The notes below the pieces were generated by a model. That model searched no databases and was not told the origin of the DNA. It saw only the letters and a program-made list of their open reading frames with translations. DNA of 64,000 bases, taken from positions 1,362,943 through 1,426,942 of the forward strand of contig NZ_FUYR01000001.1 in NCBI RefSeq assembly GCF_900168015.1, in the 5' to 3' direction. Both the position numbers and the translations under genes were made by a program. Shown here one piece after another: positions 11,613-48,133 of this stretch (positions within the stretch are counted from its first letter, which is position 1; the number at the start of each line of letters is the position of its first letter). The DNA comes from Daejeonella lutea. Lineage in GTDB: Bacteria; Bacteroidota; Bacteroidia; Sphingobacteriales; Sphingobacteriaceae.

Positions 11613-11635
11613 GCCGAGGCTCGTATCCACCCAGC

Positions 11636-23708: not shown

Positions 23709-23722
23709 TATCCACTTATCTG

Positions 23723-27531: not shown

Positions 27532-29988
27532 ATGATAAAGAACTACTTCAAGATCGCATTCAGAAATTTGATCCGTAACAGGAATTATGCGGTAATAAAT
27601 ATTGTCGGGCTGGCGGTAGGAATTGCCGTTTGCATGGTGATTTTCTTTATTATACAATTTCACAACAGTTTCGACTCCTTCCATGCAAAGAAAGAAGGGG
27701 TTTACCGGCTGCTGACTGAACATCAGGCGGAAGGAGTCAGTGCTTCTGCCAGCACGAGTATTCCTTTCCCAATGCCCCGCAGCTTGAAATCAGCCTTCCC
27801 TGAAGTGCAGGTTGCTCCCATTTATGCCAGCCGGAACGATCAGCTTCAAGTGCTAGATGCAAGTGGACGTCCGGTAAAGAACTTCAAGGAACAAACCGGG
27901 GTATTTTACACTGATCCCTCCTTTTTTAAGATGTTTGACTTTCCGCTGCTGGCAGGCTCATACGCTTCGTTGAACGATCCGAACAATGTGTTCCTGACGA
28001 AAGAGATTGCGGAAAAATATTTCGGGGACTGGAAAAGTGCGCTGGGTAGAAACATCCGTCTAACAGGATATTATCGCATCGGATCAGCTTTATTTCAGTT
28101 TCCACCAATTGTGCTGAATATAACCGGGATTCTGCAAACCATTCCCGCCAATACTGACTTCCAGCTCAAGTTGGTAATAGCCTGGGGAACTGATTTCACG
28201 GGAGATAATATCTATGGTTTACAGCAGCCCGAATGGGGCCACAGTTCCCCGGAATTTGGGAGCTATGTACTGCTGCCTCCGGGCATGACTGCTGATCGAT
28301 TCGACCGGCAGTTGAAGACGCATACAGCCAAGTTGCAATCGGCTGGAAACAGCGATACTTACACCATACAATCCTTGAGTGAGGTACATTATGACACAGA
28401 AATTGGCAATTACAGCAGTAAAACCATTAGCCGCGACCTGATCCGTGTGCTGTGGCTGATTGCTGCTTTTATTATCCTGATAGCCTGTGTCAATTTTATA
28501 AACCTTGCCACTGCTCAGGCAGCCACACGGGCGAAGGAAGTTGGAGTAAGGAAAGTGCTGGGCTCTAACCAGTATCAGCTACAGATCCAGTTCATTGTTG
28601 AAACATTCCTAATTGTAAGCGGGGCCGTTTTGCTTGCTGTTCTGCTTACTATTTTCGTCCTCCCTTCGGTTGCAAGTCTTCTGGAGCTATCGCTTTCCTT
28701 TAATGCCTTAATCAAGCCTGACTTAATCGCATTTCTTATCGGACTTACACTACTCGTAACTGCCCTCGCCGGCTTCTATCCAGCGGTGGTGCTTTCGCGT
28801 TTCAACCCGGTTAACGCCTTAAAGAGCAAGCTGAATGAAGCTACAGGAAAAGGCATTTCATTACGTCGCGGACTGGTGGTATTTCAGTTTATTATTGCAC
28901 AGGGACTAATCATTGGAACGCTGATCATCGCAAAACAAATAAACTTCTTTATGGATCAGCCGCTCGGCTTCGATAAAGAGGCTATCGTGAATGTTCCCTT
29001 TCGCCCTGACAGTACCGGCACACGCGGCACGGATTATTTAAGGCAGCAGCTTATGAAGGTAAATGGTGTTCAGTCTTTAAGCTTCAGCTCAAACACTCCT
29101 GCTGAAGATGATAATGAGATGTGGAGCAAGGTACAGTTGGTGAATGATAGTAAAGAATCTGATTTCCAGGTGATCACCAAGTTCGCAGATGAGGGCTATG
29201 TTGACACATATAAATTGCAGCTGGTCGCCGGCAAGAACCTTCAACCTTCCGGTCATACCTCTGAATTTCTGGTGAATGAGTCACTTGTAAAAAGCCTTGG
29301 GTTTAAACGGCCGGAGGATATTCTTAATAAAGAACTCAGCATCATGGGCGGCTTAATTAAATTACCTGTTGTAGGAGTGCTTAAAGATTTTAATGACCGC
29401 TCATTACGCCATGGCCTTGCCCCTTTGGTGATCACCACTAACAGTACCATGTATCGTCAGACGGCCATCAAACTTTCAACTACGAATATAAATGCTACGC
29501 TTGGTGCAATTCAAAAGGTCTGGGAACAAAGCTTCCCGGATTATGTATACGAATACAAGTTTCTGGATGAGAAGATTGAAAGCTTTTACAAACAGGAAGA
29601 TCAGCTAGCACAATTATATAAGATCTTTGCTTCTATAGCGATTTTCCTCAGCTGTCTCGGTTTGTACGGCTTAGCCTCATTCATGGCAGTGCAGCGGATA
29701 CAGGAAGTTGGCATCAGGAAAGTGCTGGGTGCATCAGCAGGAAATATCGTTCTCCTTTTCTCGAAAGAATTTATTGTCCTTATTGCAGTGGCATTTCTAA
29801 TTGCAAGCCCACTCACCTGGTACTTCATGAATAACTGGCTGCAGGATTACGTTTATCGGATTAATATCAGCTGGTGGCTTTTCGCTGCAGGTGGCCTGGC
29901 TGCGATGATCGTGGCGCTGGCAACAATAAGTTTCCAGGCTGTAAAGGCAGCGGGAGCAAATCCGGTGAAGAGCCTGAAGGTGGGTTGA
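27532..29988 (+). CDS. MacB/FtsX-type ABC transporter permease
   Basis: An 818-residue permease of the type common in Bacteroidota. It opens with MIKNYFKIAFRNLIRNRNYA and INIVGLAVGIAVCMVIFFII (first helix), then a MacB-like periplasmic domain (residues about 45-285), FtsX core helices (LIRVLWLIAAFIILIACVNF with EVGVRKVLGSNQYQLQIQFI), a second periplasmic domain (residues about 470-650) and a second FtsX core (EVGIRKVLGASAGNIVLLFS). Such proteins pair with a MacB-type ATPase and work as mechanotransmission pumps or lipoprotein/antimicrobial exporters; no ATPase gene is adjacent here. Its stop codon TGA begins a heptad array. Confidence 0.9.
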   Translation: MIKNYFKIAFRNLIRNRNYAVINIVGLAVGIAVCMVIFFIIQFHNSFDSFHAKKEGVYRLLTEHQAEGVSASASTSIPFPMPRSLKSAFPEVQVAPIYASRNDQLQVLDASGRPVKNFKEQTGVFYTDPSFFKMFDFPLLAGSYASLNDPNNVFLTKEIAEKYFGDWKSALGRNIRLTGYYRIGSALFQFPPIVLNITGILQTIPANTDFQLKLVIAWGTDFTGDNIYGLQQPEWGHSSPEFGSYVLLPPGMTADRFDRQLKTHTAKLQSAGNSDTYTIQSLSEVHYDTEIGNYSSKTISRDLIRVLWLIAAFIILIACVNFINLATAQAATRAKEVGVRKVLGSNQYQLQIQFIVETFLIVSGAVLLAVLLTIFVLPSVASLLELSLSFNALIKPDLIAFLIGLTLLVTALAGFYPAVVLSRFNPVNALKSKLNEATGKGISLRRGLVVFQFIIAQGLIIGTLIIAKQINFFMDQPLGFDKEAIVNVPFRPDSTGTRGTDYLRQQLMKVNGVQSLSFSSNTPAEDDNEMWSKVQLVNDSKESDFQVITKFADEGYVDTYKLQLVAGKNLQPSGHTSEFLVNESLVKSLGFKRPEDILNKELSIMGGLIKLPVVGVLKDFNDRSLRHGLAPLVITTNSTMYRQTAIKLSTTNINATLGAIQKVWEQSFPDYVYEYKFLDEKIESFYKQEDQLAQLYKIFASIAIFLSCLGLYGLASFMAVQRIQEVGIRKVLGASAGNIVLLFSKEFIVLIAVAFLIASPLTWYFMNNWLQDYVYRINISWWLFAAGGLAAMIVALATISFQAVKAAGANPVKSLKVG

Positions 29989-30090
29989 CGGTGGACGGTG
30001 GACAGTTGAGGGTGGACAGTTGACAGTTGACGGTGGACGGTTGACAGTTGACAGTTGACAGCCTGCCGTAATTCTTAATTCTTAATTCCT
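29984..30090 (+). repeat. GACAGTT and TTCTTAA heptad arrays
   Basis: From the permease stop (GGTTGACGG) about eleven GACAGTT/GACGGTG/GAGGGTG heptads run to 30061. A short TTCTTAA heptad array follows at 30069-30090, leading to the stop of the next, convergent gene. Confidence 0.78.
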
Positions 30091-31229: not shown

Positions 31230-31277
31230 TATCTTGATACTTGATACTTGATACTCGATACTTGATACTCGATATTT
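31230..31277 (-). repeat. GATACTT heptad array at the hexosaminidase stop
   Basis: On the plus strand ATCTTGATACTTGATACTTG continues as GATACTC/GATACTT units for about six heptads, ending in GATATTT next to the hexosaminidase stop codon. Confidence 0.75.
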
Positions 31278-34025
31278 CTACCTGTTCTCCAATTCCACTA
31301 TTCTGCTTCTCCTGCCACTCGCATCAAATGCAGCTGCTTTTATGGTGCTTCGCTCCGTGATCGGACCGGTATACAATTTACTCAGAACCGCAGGATCGGA
31401 GCCGTCCGTGGTATACCGAACCTCGAGGCCAGGATACTGGATATTAGCGACAACACGGCGGCCCTCCTGTTTAAGGCCAGGTTCCGGAATGCGATATGAA
31501 TATCCGCCGTTATAATAAGTTAATCGTGGTAGCTCACGTTTGCCCAACCGATTCGCAAACTCGATCCATGATTGATTATAGAGCACATCTGCCTGAGCAG
31601 CATCGCTAATTGTAGCCCAATCCGGGTCTTTTGACCAGGCACGTTCAGCCAGGCCCAGTAGTTTTGGAAGTAACATGTATTCCAGTCGGCCTGTACTTAT
31701 ATTGTTCTCCGACCAAAGGAGCCCCTGAACACCCACGATATTTGACTTTCCGTAGTCTGTTAAACGAATCTTGCCAGTCTGGTCAAGCTTACCGATCGGG
31801 TTTCCCTGACCGTTCTCTTTTACATTCTTTAGCATGTCGAAGGGAATAAAATAAAATGGCTTGTCAGCATCAACCAGTCCGCCCCACTTATAACCCGGCT
31901 CGAAATACGAGTTGTTGTATGCCAAGTCAAAATATTGATTAGAAACTGGTGACAGTACCACTTTGTAGCCGCCATTTGCCAGGCGGTAAGCAAGATCTTC
32001 AGCACCCGAGCCAATCGTATTATTCCAGACATTCAGATGGAAGTTGTCATCCGCGAAATCCGGGTTTGCAATATAATGAGACTTGCCATCGAGGGTGGTT
32101 TTGCGCATGCCTGCTTCCTCCCAACCGGAAACATACAGTCCACGTTTCTTCACCATATCATTTAGTTTGCCAAAGTAGTAATACCACAAATCATCTGTGG
32201 TTTTGATCTTAGGATTTGTCTTTTGAAGCGCTAAATAGGCTGGTGACTTCTCCCAAACACCCGCCGGAACTTCATCGCCGCCGAAATGAATTGTTTTCAA
32301 AGGTGCTCCTGCTTCCTTGTACATAGCAATCAGGTCGTCGGTAACCCTTTCCATAAAATTATAGGCAGATGGTAATGCCACATTGATGACATTATCGCTC
32401 CAGCCCTGGACAGAGCGATATTCGGACGAATCAGCGGGTTCGGCAAGGCGATACCGGTTCGCTTCCGCAGCTTTACCAGCCTTCATGAGCTTGGCATAAC
32501 GGTTCTCCATAGACTTGATTGCCGCGCGGGCATGTCCGGGCGACTCAATTTCAGGTATCACACTGATATGCCTTACGGCCGCGTATTTCAAGATTTCTAT
32601 GAAATCCTTTTTTGAATAATGGCCGCTGCCAGGAAGCACATTTACTGCGCCGCCCGAGCCGAATGAAGGTTGAATATTATTTTTGTTGTCGACCGTATGG
32701 CCACGCACACTACCCACTGTCGTTAATTCAGGGAGTGAAGGGATTTCAACACGCCATCCTTCATCGTCAGAAAAGTGCAGGTGCAGGGCATTTAATTTAT
32801 ACAGGCTCATTACATCGAGAACCTTCAGAATCTCTTCCTTAGGCTGGAAGTTTCTAGAAATATCAAGCATCAGACTGCGGTAGCCGAAACGGGGACCGTC
32901 CATCACTTCCACACCCGGGATCAGGATGGTTTGCTGTTTCCCCTTCCAGCTTGATGCCGGCATCAGAGTTTTCAGGGACTGGATGCCATAAAATGCGCCT
33001 GAGGGACTAGAGGCCGAGATTACCACACCAGCCGAGGTAACTTTTAGTGAATAGTTCTCTGGGGCCATCCGCGTATTCTTCTGAAGTATGATTGAATTTC
33101 CCGTCGGTAGTTCTGGAACGATCCCAGGTTTTAACAATAATACTTTCTCCAACTCGCTGGCAAGATAGTTGGCCTCTTTCGCAAATGCCGGCTCAGCATA
33201 AATCCGCGTTCCGGCATAGAGTGAAAATTGTCCTGTTGCAGTATTATATAAAGCGGGTGTCGGAAATATCTTAACAAGCTGTTCTTCATCAACATCCTTA
33301 ACCACCAGGTTTCTGGCAAAAACGTTAGCCGGATTCATCCAGCTATTTGATGCCGCAGCGAGGCTTTTTAAAAATGTGTTGTCTGGATCAGGATAAGTTG
33401 CCGGCACCGGAATAGCTTTCGTTGGTGCGCTGTCCATTACCAGATAAAAGCCCTGCGGGTTCATTGTGATGTTGTCTATTGATCCTGAGCGGACCATTGG
33501 GTAGTTGATGCTTGCCCCGGCAGCAATACCATCAGATGCCGGATTGGGTTCAATTTTATATAAATCGCCATTTATATAGGAGATAGTCAGGCCGCGGCTT
33601 TCCGGCTTAGGAAAACTTCCGCTATAATTGAAATATAATGTCCATCCATTCGGTGGAAGATCGATATCAGAATCGTTAAAGATTATCAAATTCGCCAAGG
33701 ATTGGCTCTTCCCTTCATAGTTATTCTGGACTGGCTTCCATTCCACCCGCAGCTTATAGGCCGGAGCTGGTTTTGCCGCGCTTGTTGTGGTAGTTGTTTT
33801 AGCTGGTGTTGTTTTTGCCGGTGTAGTCTTGGCTGGTGTAGTCTTCGCCGGCGCAGCTTTCGCCGGGGTAGTTTTAGCTGGCGTAGTTTTAGCTGGCGTA
33901 GTTTTAGCTGGCGTGGCTTTAGCTGGCGTAGTTTTGACTTGTGAAAATGCAGGTACTGCAAGTGCAACTAGTAGTAGAATGAAGAGGTTAAGGGCTTTGG
34001 TCTGTGATATGAAAGTCCTGATCAT
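31278..34025 (-). CDS. GH20 beta-N-acetylhexosaminidase
   Basis: A 915-residue secreted glycoside hydrolase. Signal peptide to about residue 28 (LFILLLVALAVPAFSQ), then a low-complexity stretch of AKTTP pentapeptides (31-78), a CHB_HEX-type carbohydrate-binding domain (about 88-225), a GH20b domain (about 250-370) and the GH20 barrel (from about 376) with LHLHFSDDEGWRVEIP, PEIESPGHARA and the catalytic Asp584-Glu585 in HFGGDEVP. A C-terminal chitobiase-type domain has VRYTTDGSDPA. It removes N-acetylhexosamine from chitin or glycan ends, probably in the periplasm or at the outer membrane. The Pro/Thr/Lys-rich linker after the signal peptide is unusual. Confidence 0.93.
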   Translation of the reverse strand: MIRTFISQTKALNLFILLLVALAVPAFSQVKTTPAKATPAKTTPAKTTPAKTTPAKAAPAKTTPAKTTPAKTTPAKTTTTTSAAKPAPAYKLRVEWKPVQNNYEGKSQSLANLIIFNDSDIDLPPNGWTLYFNYSGSFPKPESRGLTISYINGDLYKIEPNPASDGIAAGASINYPMVRSGSIDNITMNPQGFYLVMDSAPTKAIPVPATYPDPDNTFLKSLAAASNSWMNPANVFARNLVVKDVDEEQLVKIFPTPALYNTATGQFSLYAGTRIYAEPAFAKEANYLASELEKVLLLKPGIVPELPTGNSIILQKNTRMAPENYSLKVTSAGVVISASSPSGAFYGIQSLKTLMPASSWKGKQQTILIPGVEVMDGPRFGYRSLMLDISRNFQPKEEILKVLDVMSLYKLNALHLHFSDDEGWRVEIPSLPELTTVGSVRGHTVDNKNNIQPSFGSGGAVNVLPGSGHYSKKDFIEILKYAAVRHISVIPEIESPGHARAAIKSMENRYAKLMKAGKAAEANRYRLAEPADSSEYRSVQGWSDNVINVALPSAYNFMERVTDDLIAMYKEAGAPLKTIHFGGDEVPAGVWEKSPAYLALQKTNPKIKTTDDLWYYYFGKLNDMVKKRGLYVSGWEEAGMRKTTLDGKSHYIANPDFADDNFHLNVWNNTIGSGAEDLAYRLANGGYKVVLSPVSNQYFDLAYNNSYFEPGYKWGGLVDADKPFYFIPFDMLKNVKENGQGNPIGKLDQTGKIRLTDYGKSNIVGVQGLLWSENNISTGRLEYMLLPKLLGLAERAWSKDPDWATISDAAQADVLYNQSWIEFANRLGKRELPRLTYYNGGYSYRIPEPGLKQEGRRVVANIQYPGLEVRYTTDGSDPAVLSKLYTGPITERSTIKAAAFDASGRRSRIVELENR
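33792..33935 (-). repeat. 15-bp tandem repeat coding for AKTTP
   Basis: About nine copies of a 15-bp unit inside the hexosaminidase gene; several consecutive units are almost identical at DNA level (GTAGTTTTAGCTGGC on the plus strand), which points to recent slippage and possible length variation. Confidence 0.8.
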
Positions 34026-34068
34026 AGGGAGATGGTTTTAAATTTGGGGAAAATTACGAAAAAGGAAT

Positions 34069-34258
34069 AAGATTGTCTGGACTAGGATTCATAGGATGAT
34101 AGGATTAAGATTGTCTTAACTAGGATTCATAGGGTGATAGGATTAAGATTGTCTGGACTAGGATTCATAGGATGGTGGGATTAAAATTGCCTTAACTAGG
34201 ATTCATAGGGTGATAGGATTAAGATTGTCTGGGATAGGATTTATAGGATGATAGGATT
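34069..34258 (+). repeat. five tandem copies of a 38-bp repeat
   Basis: The unit begins AAGATTGTCTGGACTAGGAT and ends TCATAGGATGATAGGATT. Five units in phase fill the gap between the hexosaminidase start and the stop codon of the next gene; units 2 and 4 share the TTAACT variant and units 1, 3 and 5 have GGAC/GGGA. The stop codon overlaps the last unit. Confidence 0.8.
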
Positions 34259-35933
34259 ACCTCAACACCGCAACAGACCCCGACTTCTTAACCTTCCCGT
34301 TCTTATCATCAACGCCATCTACAAACCAATAGTACACCCCAACCGGAAGCGATGTTCCGTTTTTGTTTCCATCCCAATAATTATAGATATCGGTGGTGGT
34401 AAATACAACATCACCCCACTTATTGAATATTTTGAAACTTTTGACTGTGATTGCGTTGTCAATAAGTACAGTAAGCAGGTCATTTATGCCGTCGCCATTA
34501 GGTGTGAAGGTATTCGGAATGACGATGCCCTCGTAGATAATATTTGCTACTACCGGCTCGACGATGCTGCATCCGGCTGCATTGGTTACTTTAATGTAAA
34601 AGGTTGCATCCCTGTTAACGGCCTTTGCATCGGCCACAGGCACAGTAGCCTTTGGATCCCGCCAATAAGAGTATTTCATCGTCGGATCCGGTATAAAGCT
34701 CCGGGTCAGGTCGACTGTTGCGGGGTAATCAACCGGGTCAGGATCTGTTATCGTAATGGTAGGTTTTTCGGCAATTATGGCTTTAAACTCGGCGATAGCG
34801 AAACAGCCGCGCTTGTTTTGCCCCTTGATGTAATAGGTGCCGCTCTTCGTAATCTTCTTTGGGTTGGGATGCGGAATTGTAGCATTTGCATCCTCCCAGT
34901 AAGTATAAGTCAGATCCGGATAATTCCCCGAAACATGCGTCGGCAAAGTCATGTCAACCGATACACATTCGGGAGGAGGCTGCTTCACACGAATGGTGAG
35001 TCCCTGTAGTGTTGTATAAAGAGTTTGTATACAGCCAAGCCCAGGGAAGGGTATAAGTTTCAACGCAATATTAGTGCCTACCGGTGTATCAGCCGGCAGT
35101 ACCAGGCTATCGGCAGTTCCGAGTAAATCGCCGGTTTGAGTATTTCTCCATTCATATTCGTTAAACCCGGGTAATGATTTCAGTACGATTGGCTCAGCCC
35201 CAGGGCAGATGATATTTCCGGTAACCGGGAACGAACAATTCTCGGTAACATCGAGGTATACATATCCAAAGTGGGCATTAAAGGTGCAATCGTTGCTCGT
35301 AAACTCAAGCCTGATACGATGCCCAATATAATCTGTCAGATTAAGCAATACCGGCGACCATGGTTTATAAACTACATCATTTTGAGTTTCCGACCGCTTA
35401 AAACCAGGCAAAGCGCCACCTGCTACAAATTCAAAAGAACCACAGCTGGTTGAGGCACTATTAGTTTCATCGATGATCTGAACGGTAAACTTCGGTTGTT
35501 CATAGGGCTGGTGATTGGGAGCCTGAAGGACCACCGCATAATTGAATATAACTGAATACGCCGCGACATTTGCAGGGACTTCAAACGAGTAGCTAACACG
35601 TTCGGCACCATGCCCGCCTACATTATTTCCCAGCTTAACGATGTACTCACTGCCATTCGGAGAATTGAGAGGGAATCCACCGTACTCATCCTTGTCGATT
35701 CCCTTGGGAATGATGGTATGCTGGCCATATTGAGGACCTGTTTCACTAAGATCATAATTTGTTGTCCGGACATTGTTATTATTCACCACATTGACAAAGC
35801 CGCTATACGCTCTCCAGTTTGCGAAGGTCCCGGTTTCAAAGCCAATATTTTGAGGGCAATCGTTAATGCTCTGAGGGTAACTATGTATTGTGCTAAAAAA
35901 GCAAGTTAGGAATATGAGAGCCCTCGTCAGCAT
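34257..35933 (-). CDS. secreted protein with type B T9SS sorting domain
   Basis: A 558-residue exported protein with signal peptide MLTRALIFLTCFFSTIHSYP. Residues about 25-230 look like a carbohydrate-binding or jelly-roll domain (NIGFETGTFANWRAYSGFVN, SYSFEVPANVAAYSVIFNYA). Ig-like or SprB-like segments follow, and the type B sorting domain ends it (IVIPNTFTPNGDGINDLLTV; IFNKWGDVVFTTTD; KKSGSVAVLR). It should be exported through the type IX system and remain on the surface. It is the last gene of a minus-strand cluster, two bases after the preceding gene, so surface display and the MG2-type protein are likely linked. Confidence 0.87.
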   Translation of the reverse strand: MLTRALIFLTCFFSTIHSYPQSINDCPQNIGFETGTFANWRAYSGFVNVVNNNNVRTTNYDLSETGPQYGQHTIIPKGIDKDEYGGFPLNSPNGSEYIVKLGNNVGGHGAERVSYSFEVPANVAAYSVIFNYAVVLQAPNHQPYEQPKFTVQIIDETNSASTSCGSFEFVAGGALPGFKRSETQNDVVYKPWSPVLLNLTDYIGHRIRLEFTSNDCTFNAHFGYVYLDVTENCSFPVTGNIICPGAEPIVLKSLPGFNEYEWRNTQTGDLLGTADSLVLPADTPVGTNIALKLIPFPGLGCIQTLYTTLQGLTIRVKQPPPECVSVDMTLPTHVSGNYPDLTYTYWEDANATIPHPNPKKITKSGTYYIKGQNKRGCFAIAEFKAIIAEKPTITITDPDPVDYPATVDLTRSFIPDPTMKYSYWRDPKATVPVADAKAVNRDATFYIKVTNAAGCSIVEPVVANIIYEGIVIPNTFTPNGDGINDLLTVLIDNAITVKSFKIFNKWGDVVFTTTDIYNYWDGNKNGTSLPVGVYYWFVDGVDDKNGKVKKSGSVAVLR

Positions 35934-35935
35934 GG

Positions 35936-38359
35936 CTATTTTACTTCAAAGGTTGAAGATGCGACACCTGGCTGACCTGACGGTGTGATTCCCTGAACAA
36001 CGATAGTGTATTTTCCTTTTTGATCAGAGGTATAAAAGGTCATTTTTCTCTTACCGCTAGCATCGATGGCCGCATCGGGCAACCAAAATAACAAATTACG
36101 AAAATCAGGTAAACGGTCTGCTGCTTGTGCCTCGGTTTCATAAACCGGGGAATAGAATTCTCTTCTCAGCTGAGTGCCTTCATAATCGACAACTGTCGCC
36201 CTGCTGTCCAATTGAAAGTCAGGAAGGTTGTTTTTATAAGACTTGAAATTAATTATGCTGTTAAATGTGACAGGCCCCTGGTAGTATTTCTTAGTAAGAA
36301 CATCAATAGTTTTCACCTTCTTCGGATCATACTTAACCATCTTGGTTCCGCGATCGAATACGGGCACTCCATCGTATAATACTAAGGGCTCAACATTTTT
36401 ATAGGTATCATTGTAATGGGGTTTGAATGAAACCCAAACGGAAAACTCGTCTCTCTGCCTTGTGACGGGCACTTCTAATACATACTCTCTCAGCACTTCT
36501 TCCATGGTATTAAATCTCACAAAGTTATCCAGAAGATAACTCTTGTCGGGCTTTAGATAGAAGGACACACTATCCTGCGGCTTCGCATAAAAGGTCCGCA
36601 ATTTTTCGTTAAGGTAGACATTCTGCACCTGGTTTCCAACGCTCAGAGTCAGAAGTTCATCTTTAAAATTCTCGGTAAGAGGATCGCTCAATAGCGAATA
36701 ATTAGTGGTTTTAGCTGAGAAAGGACTTAGAAGTTCGATGTGATAAGTCGAATCCTGCTTGTAATTGGTCTGGGCAACGAGCTCAGACGGGCCATAAATA
36801 TCTTTTGTATAGAATTTAAGGTCGCCAGAAGTATTGCTCCGTGCGGTGTAGAGCCGGACATTCTTTCCGGGAACTGACAGATACGATACGATTCCACCTG
36901 CAGGTGAGTTCGTGCGCGAGTCTGTTAACTTAGCGCTTATAATATGACCCTCGATTTCTGGCAGGAAAGTTATTGCTGCAGGCTTGCCGCCCATAGCCTC
37001 CTCCCATACAAATCTTCTCCAGCCGTGAGTAAGCATTAAGTTATCAAGGGCTTCGTTGGCTTGTGGGTCAGTATTCTTAAGATAATATCCAGGGTCTTCG
37101 ATGTTGCCCCTGAGATCTGATTTCAGCCATAAATAGTTTAATATGTCTGTGCTATTTGATGAGAGCCCATTTGATGCATATACACCCACTGACGCCTCAG
37201 CTAGAGTTGCTGCACCATTTTCAGTGATTGCTGCAAGATCCAGGGTAACTTTCTTCCGTTTACCATATTGCAGCTGATCCGGTTTTACCGTAAACGTTAG
37301 TTTGGAGGAAGGACGTTTGAAATAAAGACGCTCGGCTACAGGTTGACCGGAACTGCTGAAGACTGTGAAATGTGAAATCCCATCGCCCAGGATAGACTTA
37401 TCGATCTGATAAACTGCCTTACCCTCGTTTAGCCTTAGTTTCTCAGCAAGCCTGGTCTGCTGGCGGGTATGCACGAGCAATAAAATTTCCCTGGCATCTG
37501 ATGTATTTCCTGCAATACTCACATTTAACTTGCCTGAAGTCTCGCTTAAGGACATGACAAAGCCCGATTTATTAGGCTGTGGTAAGTCGACAGTACGGGT
37601 TTGTCCGCCAGGCAGGTTCAGAACTGCTTTGTATGACTTGTTGCTTCCGGTTTCCATTATAAAATTGCCGATACCGAATTTTAATGGCCTGAAGCGGGTA
37701 ATAGTGTCATTTCTTTCATCAACAATACTGCCCCTAAAGTCTACACCCCGGCCGCTATCATCAACCACTCTGAACCCAACCTTCGAAGCAAGCCCTTCCA
37801 CGAGACTGCCTCCTTCCGGGAAAAACTGAATGTCGTAATTCCTGACGCTTGCTGTAGGTAGCCTGACAGGCTTAGCGAGTGTATTCACGATATGCAGTGG
37901 CTTTTCAAAGAAATAGTCAGCGCTGAAGTTTTTCATCCAGCTGGTGTAGGATCTTATCCGATAGGTACCGGAACTGAGATCGCCAGGCAAATGAAGAGAG
38001 CCATTTCCTGTTCCTTTATCGAGCGCAATCTTAGCCTGCATGACCGGCTTATGATCCTGATCCAGGATCTCTGTATAAGCTATTTTGCTGAAGTCAAGCA
38101 GGCTGTTGGATTCCGAGCCCACATTATAAACCTTGAACCATACGATCTCGCCGGCCAGATACAGGTCCTTATCGGTGTGCAGGTAAACTTTTTCCTGCAG
38201 ATTGCTCTTGCTGAAGCGGTTAAATCGGGAGCTGATACTGTCCAGGCTCACCGATTGGGCAAAGGTATCGCTAACCAATAGCAAGAAGCCCAGCAGGCAC
38301 AGCAATCTTTGCCGGCAAAACATTCCCTTGATTCCTTGTGTGAGTTCTCGCATCGTCAT
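35936..38359 (-). CDS. large exported protein with MG2-like domain
   Basis: An 807-residue protein with a long-n-region signal peptide (RQRLLCLLGFLLLVSDTFAQ). The mature N-terminus has the pattern QEKVYLHTDKDLYLAGEIVW followed by FKVYNVG, typical of Bacteroidota proteins related to alpha-2-macroglobulin MG2 domains. Further beta-sandwich domains follow (GTYRIRSYTSWMKNFSADYF; WLPDAAIDASGKRKMTFYTS; the last part KGKYTIVVQGITPSGQPG). No thioester or protease motif is seen. Three bases separate it from the DUF4249 gene upstream and two from the type B protein downstream, so the three are co-transcribed. It is probably periplasmic or outer-membrane associated; the function is unknown. Confidence 0.8.
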   Translation of the reverse strand: MTMRELTQGIKGMFCRQRLLCLLGFLLLVSDTFAQSVSLDSISSRFNRFSKSNLQEKVYLHTDKDLYLAGEIVWFKVYNVGSESNSLLDFSKIAYTEILDQDHKPVMQAKIALDKGTGNGSLHLPGDLSSGTYRIRSYTSWMKNFSADYFFEKPLHIVNTLAKPVRLPTASVRNYDIQFFPEGGSLVEGLASKVGFRVVDDSGRGVDFRGSIVDERNDTITRFRPLKFGIGNFIMETGSNKSYKAVLNLPGGQTRTVDLPQPNKSGFVMSLSETSGKLNVSIAGNTSDAREILLLVHTRQQTRLAEKLRLNEGKAVYQIDKSILGDGISHFTVFSSSGQPVAERLYFKRPSSKLTFTVKPDQLQYGKRKKVTLDLAAITENGAATLAEASVGVYASNGLSSNSTDILNYLWLKSDLRGNIEDPGYYLKNTDPQANEALDNLMLTHGWRRFVWEEAMGGKPAAITFLPEIEGHIISAKLTDSRTNSPAGGIVSYLSVPGKNVRLYTARSNTSGDLKFYTKDIYGPSELVAQTNYKQDSTYHIELLSPFSAKTTNYSLLSDPLTENFKDELLTLSVGNQVQNVYLNEKLRTFYAKPQDSVSFYLKPDKSYLLDNFVRFNTMEEVLREYVLEVPVTRQRDEFSVWVSFKPHYNDTYKNVEPLVLYDGVPVFDRGTKMVKYDPKKVKTIDVLTKKYYQGPVTFNSIINFKSYKNNLPDFQLDSRATVVDYEGTQLRREFYSPVYETEAQAADRLPDFRNLLFWLPDAAIDASGKRKMTFYTSDQKGKYTIVVQGITPSGQPGVASSTFEVK

Positions 38360-38362
38360 ATC

Positions 38363-39517
38363 CTACCAAAATGCGGGTTTAACATTAGTACCGCTGCGCA
38401 GCCGGCAGTCGAGGCATGAAGCAGGAGTTGCAGTCCAGTGTGTTATGCCACCAGCACTGTTTTGCACTGGATATTGCGGAGTATATGCAGCGCCTGGTCC
38501 GAAATGCACAGCAAGACTATCACGGTCGTTTTTAACTGGAAATGTATTACAATTCAGGCGGAAGCCCCAGCCGGGAACATCGCTGATCGTAATAAACAAT
38601 CTCTTTTCAAGCACCGGAGCAATCACGATATAGCCAATAGCAACATCATTCTTATCGCTCACATTCCTGATATTGCCAACTAACTCTGAAGGCTGTGCGT
38701 CAAAAAAGGAGCCCAATTGCTCTGTGTTCCTTTTCATCATGCTCAGGTATTCAAAAGCTTCAAAGTTGAGGGCATATTGTCTGACAAGTATGCTGTACCG
38801 CACGCTTAATTTGTCAGAAATATTCGGGATAAAGGCTACGCGGTGACGGGAAACCACATCCGCACTAAGCTTTGCCGTTGAGAAAATATCAATATTAGTA
38901 GACCGCTGCGACTTATAGCAGGTAAACATCAAGGCAGACTCCTTTGAATCGCGCGCCACAACGGCTATTCCCCCCATTGGTCCGGGTACACCGGAGTATT
39001 TTGCGGAATCAATGGAACGTATTTCCCAGTCTTCTTCAAAATCCCACTGGTAATATTTTGTATTATTCTGACTGTCCTGGGCATCAACATAAATGCCAAC
39101 ACCTTCCGGCGACCTTTCCCAGTAAAACTTATCAATGGGAGGGGTATTTTTAACAGCCAGGGCATCCGACATATACTCCACACCCGCGCTTGTTCGGATC
39201 CGGAGACGGTATTTCTGTGTACTGTTCAAGCTGAGCGCCGGTATTGAATAGAGCCCACCGGTCTTCTCGGCCAGAGTAACCGCTGTATTATTTTCAGAGA
39301 GAACCTGAACAACGGCCTTTGGCTCTGGCTTTATCACCACCTTATCATCCAGGTCCAGTGTACGACTGAGATAGATATTCGTAACGCCCGACGGATTGAT
39401 CACTCCCTCTACAATTAAGGCGCTACTGAACCCGTTGATTGCTTCCGGGTTGAAAGGCTTCTTACATCCGACCACGGTGAGAAGAGCAAAAATTCCTATC
39501 GTAAATAGTTTCCTCAT
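38363..39517 (-). CDS. DUF4249 family lipoprotein
   Basis: A 384-residue lipoprotein; I start at MRKLFTIGIFALLTVVGC, where Cys18 sits in a good lipobox, rather than at the upstream ATG at 39574. The pattern ALIVEGVINPSGVTNIYLSR, VQVLSENNTAVTLAEKTGGL and YRLRIRTSAGVEYMSDALAV is that of DUF4249, a family of outer-membrane lipoproteins usually encoded after a TonB-dependent receptor with an STN domain, as here. It ends with a Cys-rich segment (ATPASCLDCRLRSGTNVKPA) typical of the family. It probably covers or assists the receptor, by analogy with SusD (inference). The gene upstream is about 305 bp away. Confidence 0.87.
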   Translation of the reverse strand: MRKLFTIGIFALLTVVGCKKPFNPEAINGFSSALIVEGVINPSGVTNIYLSRTLDLDDKVVIKPEPKAVVQVLSENNTAVTLAEKTGGLYSIPALSLNSTQKYRLRIRTSAGVEYMSDALAVKNTPPIDKFYWERSPEGVGIYVDAQDSQNNTKYYQWDFEEDWEIRSIDSAKYSGVPGPMGGIAVVARDSKESALMFTCYKSQRSTNIDIFSTAKLSADVVSRHRVAFIPNISDKLSVRYSILVRQYALNFEAFEYLSMMKRNTEQLGSFFDAQPSELVGNIRNVSDKNDVAIGYIVIAPVLEKRLFITISDVPGWGFRLNCNTFPVKNDRDSLAVHFGPGAAYTPQYPVQNSAGGITHWTATPASCLDCRLRSGTNVKPAFW

Positions 39518-39822
39518 TGTTTTTCCCTGTTCAAGACTCCGCCCAATTCTAAATAATGAATGGCAATTCGTCATTGGTTTACTAATTCTTAATTCCTAAG
39601 CAGATAAAGCCTTCTTTACTGCGATGTTATCTTGTAGCTGTAGCAGCACCATCCTACGTTTATCCTACGTTTATCTTACGTTTGAAGCTTGGCGATGCCT
39701 ACGTTATAGCAAACTCACCCTTCTTTATCGTTTATCCATTAACTTGATTCCTTCTCCCTCATCTTATTTCTAACATCACATATCTCAAATCCCGAATCTT
39801 CCGTCTCTTATCCCGCTCGCCA
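39518..39822. other. intergenic region with three 11-bp repeats
   Basis: It contains CTAATTCTTAATTCCTAAG (a short TTCTTAA array at 39583-39601) and three direct copies of an ACGTTTATCCT 11-mer at 39650-39684 (the last with one change). No gene is seen. Confidence 0.5.
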
Positions 39823-42609
39823 CTAAAACCTAATATTATAATTCACATACGGGATAGCGTTGCCAAAAACCGACAAGCGGTAACCCTTTATTACACCTTT
39901 CTCAGAAGTAAAATAAGTTGAGTATGGATTATCGCGGCCGGTTAGGTTATATATTCCAACGGTCCATGAGCTATGCGTTAACTGATGGATCTTGTGATTA
40001 CCTTCAATGTTCATGGAAACGTCAGTGCGGAAATAATCAGGGATCCGCAGCTGGTTTCGGCCTGAATACCGGGCTCTCAGTGAACCGGCATAAAAGTACT
40101 TGCCAACCGGCACTGTTATTGGCCTGCCAGTACTGTAAGTGGTATTCAAAGACATGCTGAACCGGTGCGAAAAGCGGTAATTTCCAACCAGGGTAAGATC
40201 GTGGGGCTTATCAAAATTGGAAGGATAGTATTCGCCGTTATTGATGAGCTGTGCAGCCGTGGGATCATCCATACGGAGCAAAGTGCGCGAATATGTGTAA
40301 CCCAGCCAGCCATTTAACTTGCCGGTCAGCTTTTTGACCAGCAGCTCAACACCATATGCTTTGCCCTGTGTATTAATGACATCCCGCTCAATATCATGAT
40401 TCATCACCAGGACTGCTCCGTTGCGGTAATCGAGGTAATCCTTCAGGCGCTTATAATATCCCTCAACAGAAGTCTCAATTGTATTGGATTTAAAGTTCTT
40501 ATAAAGCCCGAGAGATACCTGGTCGCCAAACTGCGGTTTTATATTGGGATCACTCAGCTTCCATATGTCGGTTGGTGCCATAGCAGCAGTGTTCGACAGA
40601 ACGTGGATATATTGCCTCAGTGTATTATACCCGGATTTCACGGACAGGTCTTCCGTGATCTGATAGCGGGCTGAAAAGCGCATTTCCGGTCCGTGGTAAG
40701 TCTTCACAATATCGCCTTTCTTAAAATCAGTACTTCCAAGCAAATTTGGCTCTGATCGGGGTAAGCCAGGAGCATAATTATTAATGGACTGCGGACCCAT
40801 GTAATTAAACATCGAATACCTTAGCCCCAGATCAAGGGAAAGATTTGAAGTGAGATCAAACCGATCGCCGAAGTAAACAGCACTTTCATAAGCTTGTTCG
40901 GGTGCAATGATATCGCGGACAATCAGGGATTCCTTGGCGTAGGGTGTAAACGAACCGGGATTAAGTTTGTACTGAATGGTACTGACACCAAAATCAAGGG
41001 TATGCTTCGGGCTAAGATAATAGGTGAAGTCTGTTTTAACATTGACCTGCTTGATGTCAAATCCAAGCTTGTAGGCATTCACTGGGTTGATATTGCTGCG
41101 GGTATTGTAATCGTAACTGCTAAATCCACCCACAAGTACGCCGGTAAACTTATTACTGAATACATGCTTCCATTTCATTGACACGTTTTTATTACTGTAC
41201 GCGTACGATGTATCACTATTCAGATTTGAATCATCACTACTTAGGTAGCCGGTCAGGTACAGATTATTCTTATCATTGATCTTGTGACTGAGCCTGACGT
41301 TGGCGTCGTAAAACGATGCTTTGCTGTCTTTATAGTTAGAATCTTCGGGAAGCAGCCGCAATAACCAGTTCGAATAGGTTGTCCTCCCTCCTACAATAAA
41401 TGACGTTTTATCCTTTATCAGTGGTCCTTCCACATTCAGGCGGCTGGTCAGAAGGCCGATCCCTGCCGTGCCCGCAAGTTTCCTGGAGTTACCATCCTTG
41501 CTGCTCACGTCGAGCACCGATGAAAGCCGGCCGCCGTAACGTGCGGGGATACTGCTTTTATACAGCTCCACGTCCTTTACCACGTCGGGATTAAATGCGG
41601 AGAAGAAGCCGAAAAAGTGAGAAGGGTTATAAATGGTCAGGTCGTCAAAAAGTATCAGGTTCTGATCTACTGCTCCACCCCGAACGTTAAAGCCGTTAGC
41701 AGCTTCGCCTACTGTTTTCACACCGGGAAGGGTTAACATGACGCGTACTACGTCGGCTTCGCCAAAAACTACCGGCACCTGCTTTATGGTAGCGATGCTC
41801 AGCTTCTCTACCCCCATCTGTACATTGCGCACATTGGCTGAATTTTCTGCGGATACCACTACCTCGCGCAGTGATAAAACCTGGGTTTTGATTTCGATGT
41901 CAAGCTTTCCTTCTGAGTAAAGCATGATCCGGCGTTTGGTATCGGATATACCGAGAGCCTTTATATTCAGGGTGTGGGCACCACGCGGCAGAATAAGTGA
42001 ATAGTAGCCAAACTGGTCTGTATACGTTCCGATTCGTGGTGCGTCAGTAAAAACTGCAGCCCTGATGACAGGTGCACCATTTGCCGCATCCCGCACGTAA
42101 CCAGCCAGAGCTACGTTACCGCCCTGTATCTCGCTGGTTTTTATTCCAATCTCAACCAGCTTGTTTTCCTGTGTCGATGTTACGCTTCCCTGTTCATTCT
42201 GATTATATACTGTTGCGAGCGTTGATGGTTCTTTTTGGTTGACTATTCGGCTTGAATCTTTTTCACTTTCAAATAATCCATAAGGCAGAGAGGCGTAGAT
42301 TTCTTTATCACGGGTGAGGAACACGTTTCTGTCGGGATCGATTGTAAATTTAACCGGTGTATTTTCAAAAGCCTTTTTAAGGATAAATGCCAGAGGTTCG
42401 GATACGATCTTAACGGTGATGCGGACACTGTCCAGCTGCCTGGCATCATAGAAAAAGTGAAAATCAGCTTTTGATTCGATGTCACTTACTAACTGTTTGA
42501 TTGTAGCGTTTTTTAAATCAACACTTAAAACGCCTGGCTCCTGCTGAGCATAAACGTCTGCGCAGGGAAGTAGACTAATAAACAAGATAAAATTGCGGAT
42601 CAGTTTCAT
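39823..42609 (-). CDS. TonB-dependent receptor with STN domain
   Basis: A 928-residue outer-membrane receptor. Signal peptide (MKLIRNFILFISLLPCADVYA), STN/secretin-like domain at about 25-100 (GVLSVDLKNATIKQLVSDIE), a carboxypeptidase-regulatory-like domain at about 165-250 (VALAGYVRDAANGAPVIRAA), the plug at about 265-385 (PVVFGEADVVRVMLTLPGVK; GFNVRGGAVDQNLILFDDLT) and a 22-strand barrel ending YNIRF. STN domains usually contact an anti-sigma factor, but no FecR or sigma gene is adjacent. The start overlaps the preceding gene by ATGA. With DUF4249 it likely imports an unknown ligand using TonB energy. Confidence 0.92.
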   Translation of the reverse strand: MKLIRNFILFISLLPCADVYAQQEPGVLSVDLKNATIKQLVSDIESKADFHFFYDARQLDSVRITVKIVSEPLAFILKKAFENTPVKFTIDPDRNVFLTRDKEIYASLPYGLFESEKDSSRIVNQKEPSTLATVYNQNEQGSVTSTQENKLVEIGIKTSEIQGGNVALAGYVRDAANGAPVIRAAVFTDAPRIGTYTDQFGYYSLILPRGAHTLNIKALGISDTKRRIMLYSEGKLDIEIKTQVLSLREVVVSAENSANVRNVQMGVEKLSIATIKQVPVVFGEADVVRVMLTLPGVKTVGEAANGFNVRGGAVDQNLILFDDLTIYNPSHFFGFFSAFNPDVVKDVELYKSSIPARYGGRLSSVLDVSSKDGNSRKLAGTAGIGLLTSRLNVEGPLIKDKTSFIVGGRTTYSNWLLRLLPEDSNYKDSKASFYDANVRLSHKINDKNNLYLTGYLSSDDSNLNSDTSYAYSNKNVSMKWKHVFSNKFTGVLVGGFSSYDYNTRSNINPVNAYKLGFDIKQVNVKTDFTYYLSPKHTLDFGVSTIQYKLNPGSFTPYAKESLIVRDIIAPEQAYESAVYFGDRFDLTSNLSLDLGLRYSMFNYMGPQSINNYAPGLPRSEPNLLGSTDFKKGDIVKTYHGPEMRFSARYQITEDLSVKSGYNTLRQYIHVLSNTAAMAPTDIWKLSDPNIKPQFGDQVSLGLYKNFKSNTIETSVEGYYKRLKDYLDYRNGAVLVMNHDIERDVINTQGKAYGVELLVKKLTGKLNGWLGYTYSRTLLRMDDPTAAQLINNGEYYPSNFDKPHDLTLVGNYRFSHRFSMSLNTTYSTGRPITVPVGKYFYAGSLRARYSGRNQLRIPDYFRTDVSMNIEGNHKIHQLTHSSWTVGIYNLTGRDNPYSTYFTSEKGVIKGYRLSVFGNAIPYVNYNIRF

Positions 42610-43352
42610 CTTTCACTGTTTAGCTGATCAAAATACGCCAGCATCATGACTATAGCTTTTTCACGTTCCTTACGGAACTTAATCTTGTTTTGCTTGAGAT
42701 GTGCGAGAACCTCTTTCTGATATTTCCCCAGTACATCCAGGACAGATTTCTGGCTTGAAACCGGGTGAAATTTATCCCCGGTACGGACATAGATATCGCT
42801 CTTATCCCCTGAAAAAGAGATCCACACACCATCCGTATCTGTACTTATCAGGAAGTCTTTAGCCCGTTTAACTAAGATCTCGGATTTCCCTTTGTAGATC
42901 TGATCGTAGAAACCTTCACCTAGGTCGTACTGCCTGGCAGACTCACCAGCAATTCTGATAAAATGGTGGCCTTCAATAGTAAAATCGCTGATTTTTTCGG
43001 GGTGAAGGCTAATACGTGAATAATTATCAATGTATTGAACAACAACTTCCTGTTTGGCTATATCGAACCACATGGGAACATTCCTGTACACCATGCCGTC
43101 GTACCGGATCTCACCGCGCCGGACATCACCAGAAATGAAGAACTGCTGGCCTTTTTTTATGGGATGGGGATATCCAATGTAATCGACGCCACTATATATG
43201 GCAGCCTGATCTGCGAGACTTGCAGCATATATTTCCCGTGCATGCAGCAATGCCAGGTCTTCGTTACTATTCCTGCCTTGCTGGCTAAAAGCTGTATTTA
43301 CAAGAAAGAAAGTGAATGTGAGAGTTAAAACCAGGGAACAACGATGGTTCAT
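42606..43352 (-). CDS. exported protein preceding the TonB receptor
   Basis: A 248-residue secreted protein with signal peptide ending near NTAFSQQ. No known domain is recognised. The body is beta-rich (RGEIRYDGMVYRNVPMWFDI; IEGHHFIRIAGESARQYDLG) and the C-terminus is a basic helix (LKQNKIKFRKEREKAIVMML). Its stop overlaps the TonB receptor start by four bases, so it is the first gene of the cluster 43352-34257 and should be translated with the receptor. It takes the place that a FecR-type regulator often holds, but has no resemblance to FecR. Confidence 0.75.
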   Translation of the reverse strand: MNHRCSLVLTLTFTFFLVNTAFSQQGRNSNEDLALLHAREIYAASLADQAAIYSGVDYIGYPHPIKKGQQFFISGDVRRGEIRYDGMVYRNVPMWFDIAKQEVVVQYIDNYSRISLHPEKISDFTIEGHHFIRIAGESARQYDLGEGFYDQIYKGKSEILVKRAKDFLISTDTDGVWISFSGDKSDIYVRTGDKFHPVSSQKSVLDVLGKYQKEVLAHLKQNKIKFRKEREKAIVMMLAYFDQLNSER

Positions 43353-47238: not shown

Positions 47239-48060
47239 TTACTTTCCGGAAGCTTCTTTTACCAATCTTAAAGCAAGATCTTTTCCAAGATATCTGTCTA
47301 TGATAGAATGTATTATGTACAGCAAGGGTGTCATGAGAATAGCCACCAGGAATTTATATGTATAATTCACCAGGCCTATTGCGGCAACCATTTGCCAGCT
47401 CCAGCTATACTGAGGATTAATATAAAAAGCGATAAAGATCACTACAAAACTATCGATGAATTGAGAAACCAGTGTAGATCCGGTTGCTCGTAGCCAGAGA
47501 AACCTCTCTCCGGTGGCTTTTTTGATCTTGTGAAAAATAACTACGTCGACCATCTGCCCGATCAGGAACGCAGTAATCGAGCCCACAATTATCCACATCC
47601 CCTGTCCGAAAATACCGTTGAATGCTACGTTCATGTTTAATGCTTCGCCACTCACATTCTGGTTAATCCAAAAATCTGAAGGCACCAGCCCCATAGCGAA
47701 TCCAACCACCAAAAAAGCGTAGCAGATAATTATCGAAGCCAGGATGGATAAAAACCGCACCTGCTTTACCCCGAAGTATTCGTTAATAATATCGGTCATG
47801 ATAAAAATGATTGGCCAGGTAACCACGCCCGCGGACATGTTGAACGACAAATCTTTTACTCCAAACATGTTAATATCAAATTTCGGGATGCCCAGCGAAC
47901 CCTCCACAGTAAATATCTTTACGCCAATAAATTCGGCAAGGATCGCATTAGAGATTAAAAAAGATCCGAGGATTATAAAAAGCCGGCTCTCTTTGGTTTT
48001 AAACGTCACGTTGTGTGGTTTGGTTGGTTGAAAATACGCAAAAATAGTATCAGGAACCAA
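47239..48060 (-). CDS. yhhQ: queuosine precursor transporter (YhhQ/VUT family)
   Basis: A 273-residue membrane protein with about six to seven helices. Family signatures are ILGSFLISNAILAEFIGVKI, SAGVVTWPIIFIMTDIINEY and FLIGQMVDVVIFHKIKKATG, then LRATGSTLVSQFIDSFVVIF. YhhQ imports preQ0/preQ1-type precursors of queuosine, used to modify tRNA wobble guanosine. The first codon as drawn is TTG; a GTG at 48009 (VTFKTKESRLFIIL) is an alternative start, and a TATTTTTG box (48039-48046) on this strand could be a promoter for that shorter form. It is convergent with the FKBP gene. Confidence 0.88.
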   Translation of the reverse strand: MVPDTIFAYFQPTKPHNVTFKTKESRLFIILGSFLISNAILAEFIGVKIFTVEGSLGIPKFDINMFGVKDLSFNMSAGVVTWPIIFIMTDIINEYFGVKQVRFLSILASIIICYAFLVVGFAMGLVPSDFWINQNVSGEALNMNVAFNGIFGQGMWIIVGSITAFLIGQMVDVVIFHKIKKATGERFLWLRATGSTLVSQFIDSFVVIFIAFYINPQYSWSWQMVAAIGLVNYTYKFLVAILMTPLLYIIHSIIDRYLGKDLALRLVKEASGK

Positions 48061-48082
48061 GGTTCAGGGAGCAGATATCATG

Positions 48083-48133
48083 AAGCAGGTATCAGGAAGC
48101 AGGTATTAGGTATCAGGTTTCAGGTTTGAGGTA
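48083..48133 (+). repeat. CAGGTAT heptad array
   Basis: CAGGTAT, CAGGAAG, CAGGTAT, TAGGTAT, CAGGTTT, CAGGTTT and GAGGTAC follow one another in strict 7-bp phase in the gap between two divergent genes. Confidence 0.78.

What the first reader, a model, noticed from the sequence alone, without database searches (positions are those of the whole stretch)
34257..43352. Five-gene envelope cluster: unknown exported protein, STN-TonB receptor, DUF4249, MG2-like, type B protein
Four of the five junctions have gaps or overlaps that imply co-transcription (4-bp overlap, 305 bp, 3 bp, 2 bp; only the receptor-DUF4249 gap is long). Receptor and DUF4249 pairs are known, but linkage to an MG2-like protein and a T9SS surface protein suggests a combined uptake and surface-display unit. 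The first gene stands where an anti-sigma factor would be expected, but has no FecR features.
Basis: partly seen in the sequence, partly recalled or inferred. Interest (0 to 1): 0.5.

Follow-up and report, generated by a model that had tools for sequence, protein, structure and literature searches.

The report
Four-part outer-membrane uptake operon
Four of the five genes look like one operon kept by many Bacteroidota: a TonB-driven outer-membrane transporter, its likely surface lid, an exported protein of unknown kind and a complement-like protein carrying a spare transporter plug; the fifth gene, a surface protein, is a local newcomer.

Summary
Four (exported unknown "U1", STN receptor, DUF4249 lipoprotein, "MG2-like" protein) form an operon-like unit conserved far beyond close relatives: in 75 of 75 loci with readable upstream sequence (80 fetched, chosen by MG2 similarity) U1 and receptor precede MG2, usually with 1-4 DUF4249 genes between. 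In 148 Bacteroidota genomes, U1 (>=80 bits) and long-type DUF4249 occur together in 11; one more has DUF4249 with a broken U1. One congener outside that set has an unlinked U1 of 82.7 bits. The fifth gene, a T9SS surface protein, is not part: it follows MG2 in 0 of 7 readable congener loci, six of which have a hexosaminidase there; its kin lie elsewhere. The MG2-like protein is a truncated macroglobulin/complement-type chain with a receptor-type CTD and plug-like domain but no barrel, apparently where macroglobulins carry their bait region. U1 has no Pfam family above cut-off and no convincing solved fold. Best reading: a lid-type TonB-dependent importer with two extra exported, probably periplasmic, partners; substrate unknown.

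The parts
42606..43352 (-). U1: exported 248-aa protein, first gene of the operon, no Pfam family above cut-off, confident AlphaFold model without a convincing PDB match
   Evidence: N-terminal helix, invariant Gln24 after the presumed signal peptide
39823..42609 (-). TonB-dependent receptor: STN, CarbopepD_reg_2, plug, barrel
   Evidence: 4-bp overlap with U1
38363..39517 (-). DUF4249 lipoprotein (likely surface lid), long type with conserved Cys200, Cys323 and C-terminal CxDC...PxFW
   Evidence: ORF extends to 39574, relatives align from Met at 39517
35936..38359 (-). Macroglobulin-plug protein: MG2 domain, further MG-type domains, CTD and plug-like domain without barrel, closing MG strands
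39518..39822 (-). Genome-specific 305-bp spacer inside the operon, with an 11-bp tandem repeat whose motif recurs elsewhere in the genome
   Evidence: 4 bp in nearest congener
34257..35933 (-). T9SS type B surface protein: next to the operon but not part of it; diverged extra copy of a gene kept at another locus

Best explanation
U1-receptor-DUF4249-MG2 is a conserved TonB-dependent import operon of Bacteroidota. Shown by computation: the gene order and its breadth, co-occurrence of U1 with the long DUF4249, the conserved lipoprotein cysteine of DUF4249, the receptor's domains, several DUF4249 copies beside one receptor, and the macroglobulin-plus-plug make-up of the fourth protein. Inferred: the DUF4249 lipoprotein sits on the cell surface as a lid that captures substrate and closes on the barrel (as BtuG or SusD do); TonB opens the plug; U1 and the macroglobulin-plug protein, which carry signal peptides but mostly no lipobox and no T9SS domain, work on the periplasmic face of the receptor, the macroglobulin chain as a docking arm or acceptor whose barrel-less CTD-plug module binds the receptor or its cargo. 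Several lids per receptor would widen or vary the substrate range. The T9SS protein is a local neighbour. The four-part importer is likely (about 0.7); the periplasmic docking/acceptor step is a guess (about 0.3).
For: U1 and receptor before MG2 on one strand in 75 of 75 readable loci of 80, and all 15 U1 hits of at least 80 bits in 148 genomes lie in the cluster, 14 with DUF4249. U1 (>=80 bits) and long DUF4249 (E <= 1e-25): together in 11 genomes, DUF4249 without it in 1 (U1 broken), U1 without DUF4249 in 0, neither in 136 (Fisher p 9e-16; the 80-bit line was drawn after seeing the list). Distances of U1, receptor and MG2 correlate over 90 loci (r 0.86-0.95, 0 of 999 permutations as high). 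Cys18 kept in 128 of 130 DUF4249 rows. In 15 of 26 multi-copy loci the DUF4249 copies form an exclusive clade. The MG2 protein's C-part matches the receptor's CTD+plug by profile (P 2.7e-7; nine control pairs 0.06 to 0.69), and Plug exceeds Pfam's cut-off in 4 of 7 paralogous ORFs. For a DUF4249 pair in Bacteroides, PMC11003636 states that disrupting BT2172 or BT2173 has similar consequences (passages read).
Against: No substrate, expression, localisation or interaction data. DUF4249 is absent between receptor and MG2 in 8 of 76 loci readable there (in one of these seven copies follow MG2, in three a copy follows on the opposite strand, one is cut at the contig end), and in this genome's own second cluster L108, so the lid is not obligatory at that place. 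U1 is broken in one otherwise complete operon (L154). A congener (G155) has a U1 relative of 82.7 bits, above my line, with no cluster gene within about 7 kb (L151); 18 of the 148 genomes have only weaker U1-like hits, and the nine such loci fetched are not clusters. Two other receptor-DUF4249 pairs of this genome lack U1 and MG2 (L106, L107), so a lid transporter does not need them. The distance correlation would also follow from species history alone. The periplasmic side rests on signal peptides only: a crude lipobox motif was seen in 8 of 85 U1 and 9 of 93 MG2 rows, and in only 71 of 121 DUF4249 rows. Genes before and after the operon vary and give no substrate hint.
Confidence: 0.6

Rival explanations
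1. Signalling unit: the STN domain makes the receptor a sensor, and U1 takes the place of an anti-sigma factor, switching on a regulon when substrate binds.
For: STN in 16 of 18 receptors and weak FecR_C-like overlap in 7 of 18, both at E <= 1; a gene with sigma-70 region 2 lies upstream of U1 in L052.
Against: U1 has a signal peptide, no further hydrophobic segment by eye and no FecR match; the ten upstream genes scanned, from nine loci, differ (IF-2, PNPase, YhhN, fatty-acid hydroxylase, acyltransferase, glycosyltransferase and others), so there is no fixed sigma partner. STN also occurs in receptors that only transport (general knowledge).
Confidence: 0.1
2. The MG2 protein is a protease trap or defence protein of the macroglobulin kind that merely shares the operon.
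For: Fold match to E. coli and Salmonella alpha-2-macroglobulin, VIA Z 19-20.
Against: The chain aligns only up to about residue 789 of human alpha-2-macroglobulin and no thioester-domain family was listed; the insertion place holds a CTD-plug module that is kept in the shortened versions too.
Confidence: 0.1
3. Combined uptake and surface-display unit including the T9SS protein.
For: 2-bp gap between MG2 and the T9SS gene, so co-transcription in this genome is possible.
Against: 0 of 7 readable congener loci have it; kin of the T9SS gene sit at another locus, where this genome keeps a second copy (52-74% identical to five congener copies, against 45-49% for the window copy).
Confidence: 0.04
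4. Export or assembly machine: the receptor-like barrel with U1 and MG2 helps to put the DUF4249 lipoproteins or other proteins on the surface.
For: Several DUF4249 copies beside one barrel.
Against: The receptor keeps the plug and CTD domains of importers; DUF4249 genes also exist away from any cluster (L105, L155, L156).
Confidence: 0.1

Closest known systems
BT2172-BT2173 (TonB-dependent transporter + DUF4249; PMC11003636, passages read; it cites Price et al. 2023, bioRxiv 2023.03.17.533168, not held and not read)
   Same: Receptor and DUF4249 protein as conserved neighbours that act together
   Different: Here U1 and a macroglobulin-plug protein are added and the lid copy number varies. 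Whether BT2172 has such partners was not tested here
BtuB-BtuG (PMC10404256, abstract read)
   Same: TonB-dependent barrel with a non-SusD surface lipoprotein lid
   Different: Other lid family; its abstract names no counterpart of U1 or the macroglobulin protein
SusCD and utilisomes (PMC7618045, abstract read)
   Same: Barrel, lid and further partners as one machine
   Different: No SusD domain here and no glycan-degrading genes fixed beside the operon; the extra partners mostly lack a lipobox
Bacterial alpha-2-macroglobulin / complement C3-C5 fold
   Same: Chain of MG domains up to the closing strands of the domain that is split around the bait or anaphylatoxin part (domain limits recalled)
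   Different: No thioester part; CTD-plug module in the insertion place
FecA-FecR signalling receptors
   Same: STN domain
   Different: No FecR match and no constant sigma gene; U1 is a different exported family

Membership tests
TonB-dependent transporter with lipoprotein lid (pedal-bin kind) | Receptor with CTD, plug and barrel | tested here: met
   CarbopepD_reg_2 and Plug in 18 of 18 at E <= 1; barrel model PF25183 in the window protein and 3 of 18, PF00593 in 6 of 18
TonB-dependent transporter with lipoprotein lid (pedal-bin kind) | Neighbouring co-directional lipoprotein gene | tested here: met
   DUF4249, Cys18 in 128 of 130 rows; but no copy between receptor and MG2 in 8 of 76 readable loci
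TonB-dependent transporter with lipoprotein lid (pedal-bin kind) | Lid opens and closes on the barrel over substrate | not testable with these tools
   needs structure or biochemistry
BT2172-BT2173 type pair | Receptor of the BT2172 subfamily | not tested
   the BT2172 sequence was not at hand
SusCD | SusD-family lid | tested here: not met
   the lid gene matches DUF4249 only, no SusD match up to E 0.05
FecAR signalling | FecR anti-sigma and sigma gene beside the receptor | tested here: not met
   U1 has no FecR match in the listed families; scanned upstream genes vary, one of ten sigma-like
Alpha-2-macroglobulin | Chain of MG domains | tested here: met
   MG2 domain; VIA Z 19.8, rmsd 5.6, 320 aligned (4u48)
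Alpha-2-macroglobulin | Thioester domain | tested here: not met
   no such Pfam match in the window protein or the ten others scanned singly, nor among the 25 families listed for 54 members
Alpha-2-macroglobulin | Bait region | tested here: inconclusive
   no A2M_BRD match listed for operon proteins; CTD-plug module near that place by aligned ranges; one paralog has a sub-threshold A2M_BRD match, E 0.014
T9SS type B cargo (fifth gene) | CHU_C / TIGR04131 C-terminal domain | tested here: met
Polysaccharide utilisation locus | Glycan-degrading genes fixed in the operon | tested here: not met
   of ten downstream genes scanned four are glycoside hydrolases of three kinds, six are not; GH20 was seen next to MG2 only in congeners

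The most novel reading that the evidence does not exclude
A TonB-dependent transporter with a second plug in trans: the receptor's CTD-plug module has a relative mounted on a complement-like macroglobulin arm, which docks at the periplasmic mouth (with U1) and takes over or holds open the channel while the resident plug is pulled by TonB, so that large or folded cargo caught by interchangeable DUF4249 lids can pass.
Probability: 0.1. Interest if true: 0.85.

Novelty: new variant of a known kind. Interest (0 to 1): 0.52.

Why it matters
If right, lid-type transporters in Bacteroidota are not only barrel plus lid: one class carries two further conserved partners, one without any recognised family and one joining a complement-like scaffold to a transporter plug. 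This gives a defined, testable set of genes for asking what happens behind the barrel, and shows single receptors with several lid genes (up to seven in one locus). It also corrects the idea that T9SS surface display belongs to the unit.

Tried and rejected
T9SS gene as part of the unit: rejected. FecR-like role for U1: no match. Function of U1 by fold: Foldseek 629 weak matches, none at E <= 0.001; VIA best Z 3.5 over 49 residues of the C-terminal helices; this does not show that the fold is new. Function of U1 by distant relatives: nine loci of U1-like genes under 80 bits fetched (L115, L125-L132) show unrelated neighbours, except two with a receptor (L131, where SusD was found by Pfam, and L132, judged by gene sizes). 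Substrate from neighbours: mixed genes. Solved relatives by sequence: none for the receptor at E <= 0.01, two irrelevant ones for DUF4249 (E 1.6 and 1.7). Literature: no paper with 'MG2 domain' + TonB + Bacteroidetes, with 'MG2 domain' + Bacteroidetes, or with alpha-2-macroglobulin + plug domain + TonB-dependent receptor + Bacteroidetes; 'MG2 domain-containing protein' gave two animal papers (listing only); DUF4249 one paper; bt2172 two, one unrelated. bioRxiv is not held. A first hhalign of the MG2 C-part against the receptor with operon rows only was weak (P 0.014, probability 3%); significance came only after paralogs, short forms and other receptors were added, and the plug match there covers only 34 columns. 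Pfam Plug in operon-type MG2 proteins is weak: 13 of 54 at E <= 1, best E 0.0074, not in the window protein; 2 of 9 short forms, below cut-off. The promoter/terminator scan was at chance level; Rfam found only the tRNA. A direct 3D check of where the plug module sits could not be made, as model coordinates are not readable; the place is read from aligned ranges (complement beta chains align to model residues 33-463, whole chains to 34-807) with recalled complement domain limits. Signal peptides were judged by eye and by crude motifs, not by a predictor.
Full report
The observation. All five ORFs stand at the stated places on the minus strand. The junctions are a 4-bp overlap (U1/receptor), about 305 bp (receptor/DUF4249, counted to the ATG at 39517 at which relatives align), 3 bp and 2 bp. 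The genome is 4.03 Mb in 10 contigs. Three congeners have contigs of exactly the same length as named records (NCHA01000022.1, a Sphingobacteriales MAG, and NZ_JAUXXZ010000052.1 and JAURKO010000036.1, both Daejeonella MAGs), so the window is probably from Daejeonella or a genus close to it.

Conservation. A scan of the collection of 84,980 species genomes with the MG2 protein confirmed 153 relatives, of which the best 80 were kept; they were chosen by MG2 similarity, so orthologs are favoured. In my gene calls four loci begin inside MG2 at a contig end and one (L045) inside the receptor. In all 75 others U1 and receptor stand before MG2 on the same strand; for two of these (L031, L062) U1 was missed by the ORF rule and found by six-frame search. 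DUF4249 counts between receptor and MG2: one copy in 46 loci, two in 17, three in 4, four in 1, none in 8; the other 4 are the contig-end cases. Of the 8 without, L037 carries seven copies after MG2, three (L055, L068, L081) have a copy on the opposite strand after MG2, L103 is cut at its end, and L075, L077 and L094 show none. Named hosts include Mucilaginibacter, Daejeonella, Pontibacter, Hymenobacter, Spirosoma, Dyadobacter, Ohtaekwangia, Chitinophaga, Flavitalea and Ginsengibacter.

A less biased view. U1's profile was searched in 148 Bacteroidota genomes: 30 have a match at E <= 1e-6, 43 places in all. Fifteen places, in 11 genomes, reach 80 bits; all fifteen lie in the cluster, fourteen with DUF4249, the exception being this genome's second cluster L108. 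Of the 28 weaker places I fetched eleven: ten (nine loci, L115 and L125-L132) are not in a cluster, one (L154) is a broken U1 inside one. The long DUF4249 profile in the same 148 genomes matches 12 genomes at E <= 1e-25: the same 11 plus G057, whose operon is otherwise complete but whose U1 frame is broken (L154). The 28 rows of that list are 27 genes: 21 in clusters, five fetched ones outside (L105, two in L155, L156, L157) and one not looked at. Against the linkage: in the window's genus, where 12 of 20 genomes have U1 at E <= 1e-20, G155 has a U1 relative of 82.7 bits whose surroundings (L151) hold no other cluster gene. So U1 relatives of this closeness also occur alone.

The fifth gene. 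Of ten congener loci fetched, seven can be read beyond MG2: six have the GH20 hexosaminidase next, one (L143) small ORFs; none has the T9SS gene. In the window the T9SS gene lies between MG2 and that same GH20 gene, with YhhN, fatty-acid hydroxylase and FKBP genes shared on the other side. Strong kin of the T9SS gene occur in seven congeners, five of which also have a U1 hit, each time on another contig. Five of these seven were fetched; they and this genome's own second copy (L148) have neighbours of like size (sizes only). The L148 copy is 52-74% identical to the five congener copies, the window copy 45-49%. So the window's T9SS gene is best read as a diverged extra copy that came to lie behind MG2; a 38-bp tandem repeat array (34063-34259) borders it. 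Ten downstream genes of other clusters scanned with Pfam gave GH20 (2), integrase (2), MFS, rhamnosidase, arabinofuranosidase, DNA polymerase I, DUF4112 and one without match: no T9SS domain. A single-sequence search with the window's T9SS domain hit only L126 and L077 besides the window copy in L001-L134, and in L135-L157 only the six kin genes themselves; a diverged domain could be missed.

The macroglobulin-plug protein. AlphaFold gave pLDDT 86.4, pTM 0.85 from 54 rows. Foldseek's best matches are complement C3/C5-type proteins and bacterial and animal alpha-2-macroglobulins, E down to 8.4e-16; VIA Z 19.8, rmsd 5.6, 320 aligned for 4u48. Complement beta chains align to residues 33-463 only, whole chains to 34-807, so residues of about 470-720 seem to lie where the linker and anaphylatoxin part of complement, or the bait region of macroglobulins, is inserted (domain limits recalled). 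The strand list fits: three strands at 355-395 and four at 756-806 could make one split domain. Distant operons (L116-L124, nine complete proteins) have a shortened protein that keeps a first stretch ending at profile position 138-179 and a last one from 459-464 to 760-804; in six of nine the only remnant between is about 352-406, each match weak alone (iE 0.003 to 1.6). The inserted part is a carboxypeptidase-regulatory-like domain followed by a plug-like domain. Profile comparison with the receptors: CTD+plug against CTD+plug P 2.7e-7, CTD against CTD 5.3e-7, plug against plug 7.4e-7 (34 columns only), nine control pairs 0.06-0.69. In paralogs outside operons Plug passes Pfam's cut-off in 4 of 7 ORFs scanned. 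Six of those paralogs (L109-L112, L114) form their own clade (support 1.0) apart from operon members in a midpoint-rooted FastTree tree; the operon members themselves are not one clade in it.

U1. Sixty-two rows align over 351 columns; Gln24, Gly55 and Tyr84 are invariant. AlphaFold: pLDDT 92.3, an N-terminal helix, long antiparallel strands (157-172, 175-191) and two C-terminal helices. No Pfam family matched more than 2 of 62 members at E <= 1; the only PDB sequence match is at E 0.27; no convincing fold match. U1 and MG2 diverge faster than the receptor: against the nearest congener L142 identity is 55% (U1), 60% (MG2), 84% (receptor), DUF4249 67%, and neighbouring genes 68-78%.

DUF4249. 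In an alignment of 130 rows the 128 long ones all share Cys200, Cys368 and Cys371 and end in CxDC...PxFW (nearly all columns), and 127 share Cys323; the two short DUF4249 proteins of this genome's other receptor pairs (L106, L107) lack all these. Cys18 is missing in two rows only (L037_f, L055_a). The family thus has at least two kinds here: a short one with a receptor alone, and a long one found mostly with U1 and the macroglobulin-plug protein. In 15 of 26 loci with two or more rows the copies form an exclusive clade in a FastTree tree (no support test); in others, such as several Mucilaginibacter pairs, copies match their counterparts in another species by position. So lid genes have duplicated repeatedly (or been homogenised) while each cluster keeps a single receptor; L118 holds two receptor-DUF4249-MG2 units behind one U1.

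Mechanism. Known lid systems work like a pedal bin: lipoprotein lids capture cargo and close on the barrel (PMC10404256 and PMC7618045, abstracts read). For a DUF4249 pair of B. thetaiotaomicron, disrupting either gene has similar consequences (PMC11003636, passages read). I therefore read this operon as such an importer with two added exported partners. That U1 and the macroglobulin-plug protein act in the periplasm is not shown. Substrate unknown.

Standing. Receptor plus DUF4249 is known; the four-part form was not found in the papers searched, but the key preprint is not held, so novelty of the linkage itself is uncertain.

Noticed in passing
39651-39683 and other places of the genome: An 11-bp tandem motif in the operon's 305-bp spacer recurs in seven further matches at five sites of contig C10 (87-100% over 32-50 bases); an interspersed short repeat.
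   Followed up: partly
34063-34259: 38-bp tandem repeat, 5.2 copies, ending at the stop of the T9SS gene, between it and GH20; may mark the insertion border.
   Followed up: no
5384-5429, 5770-5894, 7743-7794, 9881-9931, 10259-10295, 11578-11613, 21494-21581, 22168-22232, 23426-23471, 23676-23716, 29983-30061, 31233-31274, 48047-48133: Thirteen tandem arrays with a period of 7 bases and differing sequence in this 64-kb window; an odd habit that deserves its own study.
   Followed up: no
3674-3837, 9932-10071, 11473-11540: The 15-base unit TGGATTTCCGACAAG, or a close variant, is repeated within three separate arrays.
   Followed up: no
33796-33935: 15-bp tandem repeat inside the GH20 gene coding a TPAKT-like linker near the N-terminus.
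   Followed up: no
L037:7086-17073: Seven DUF4249 genes after U1-receptor-MG2, all one clade.
   Followed up: partly
L131, L132: A distant U1-like gene stands behind a receptor-like gene and a SusD gene (SusD by Pfam in L131 only), hinting that U1 relatives may also serve SusCD systems.
   Followed up: partly
L110, L113: Two macroglobulin-plug paralogs in tandem, and one in which the macroglobulin part (606 aa) and the plug part (261 aa) are separate neighbouring ORFs.
   Followed up: no
L105, L155, L156: Long-type DUF4249 genes standing alone, without receptor, U1 or MG2 nearby.
   Followed up: partly
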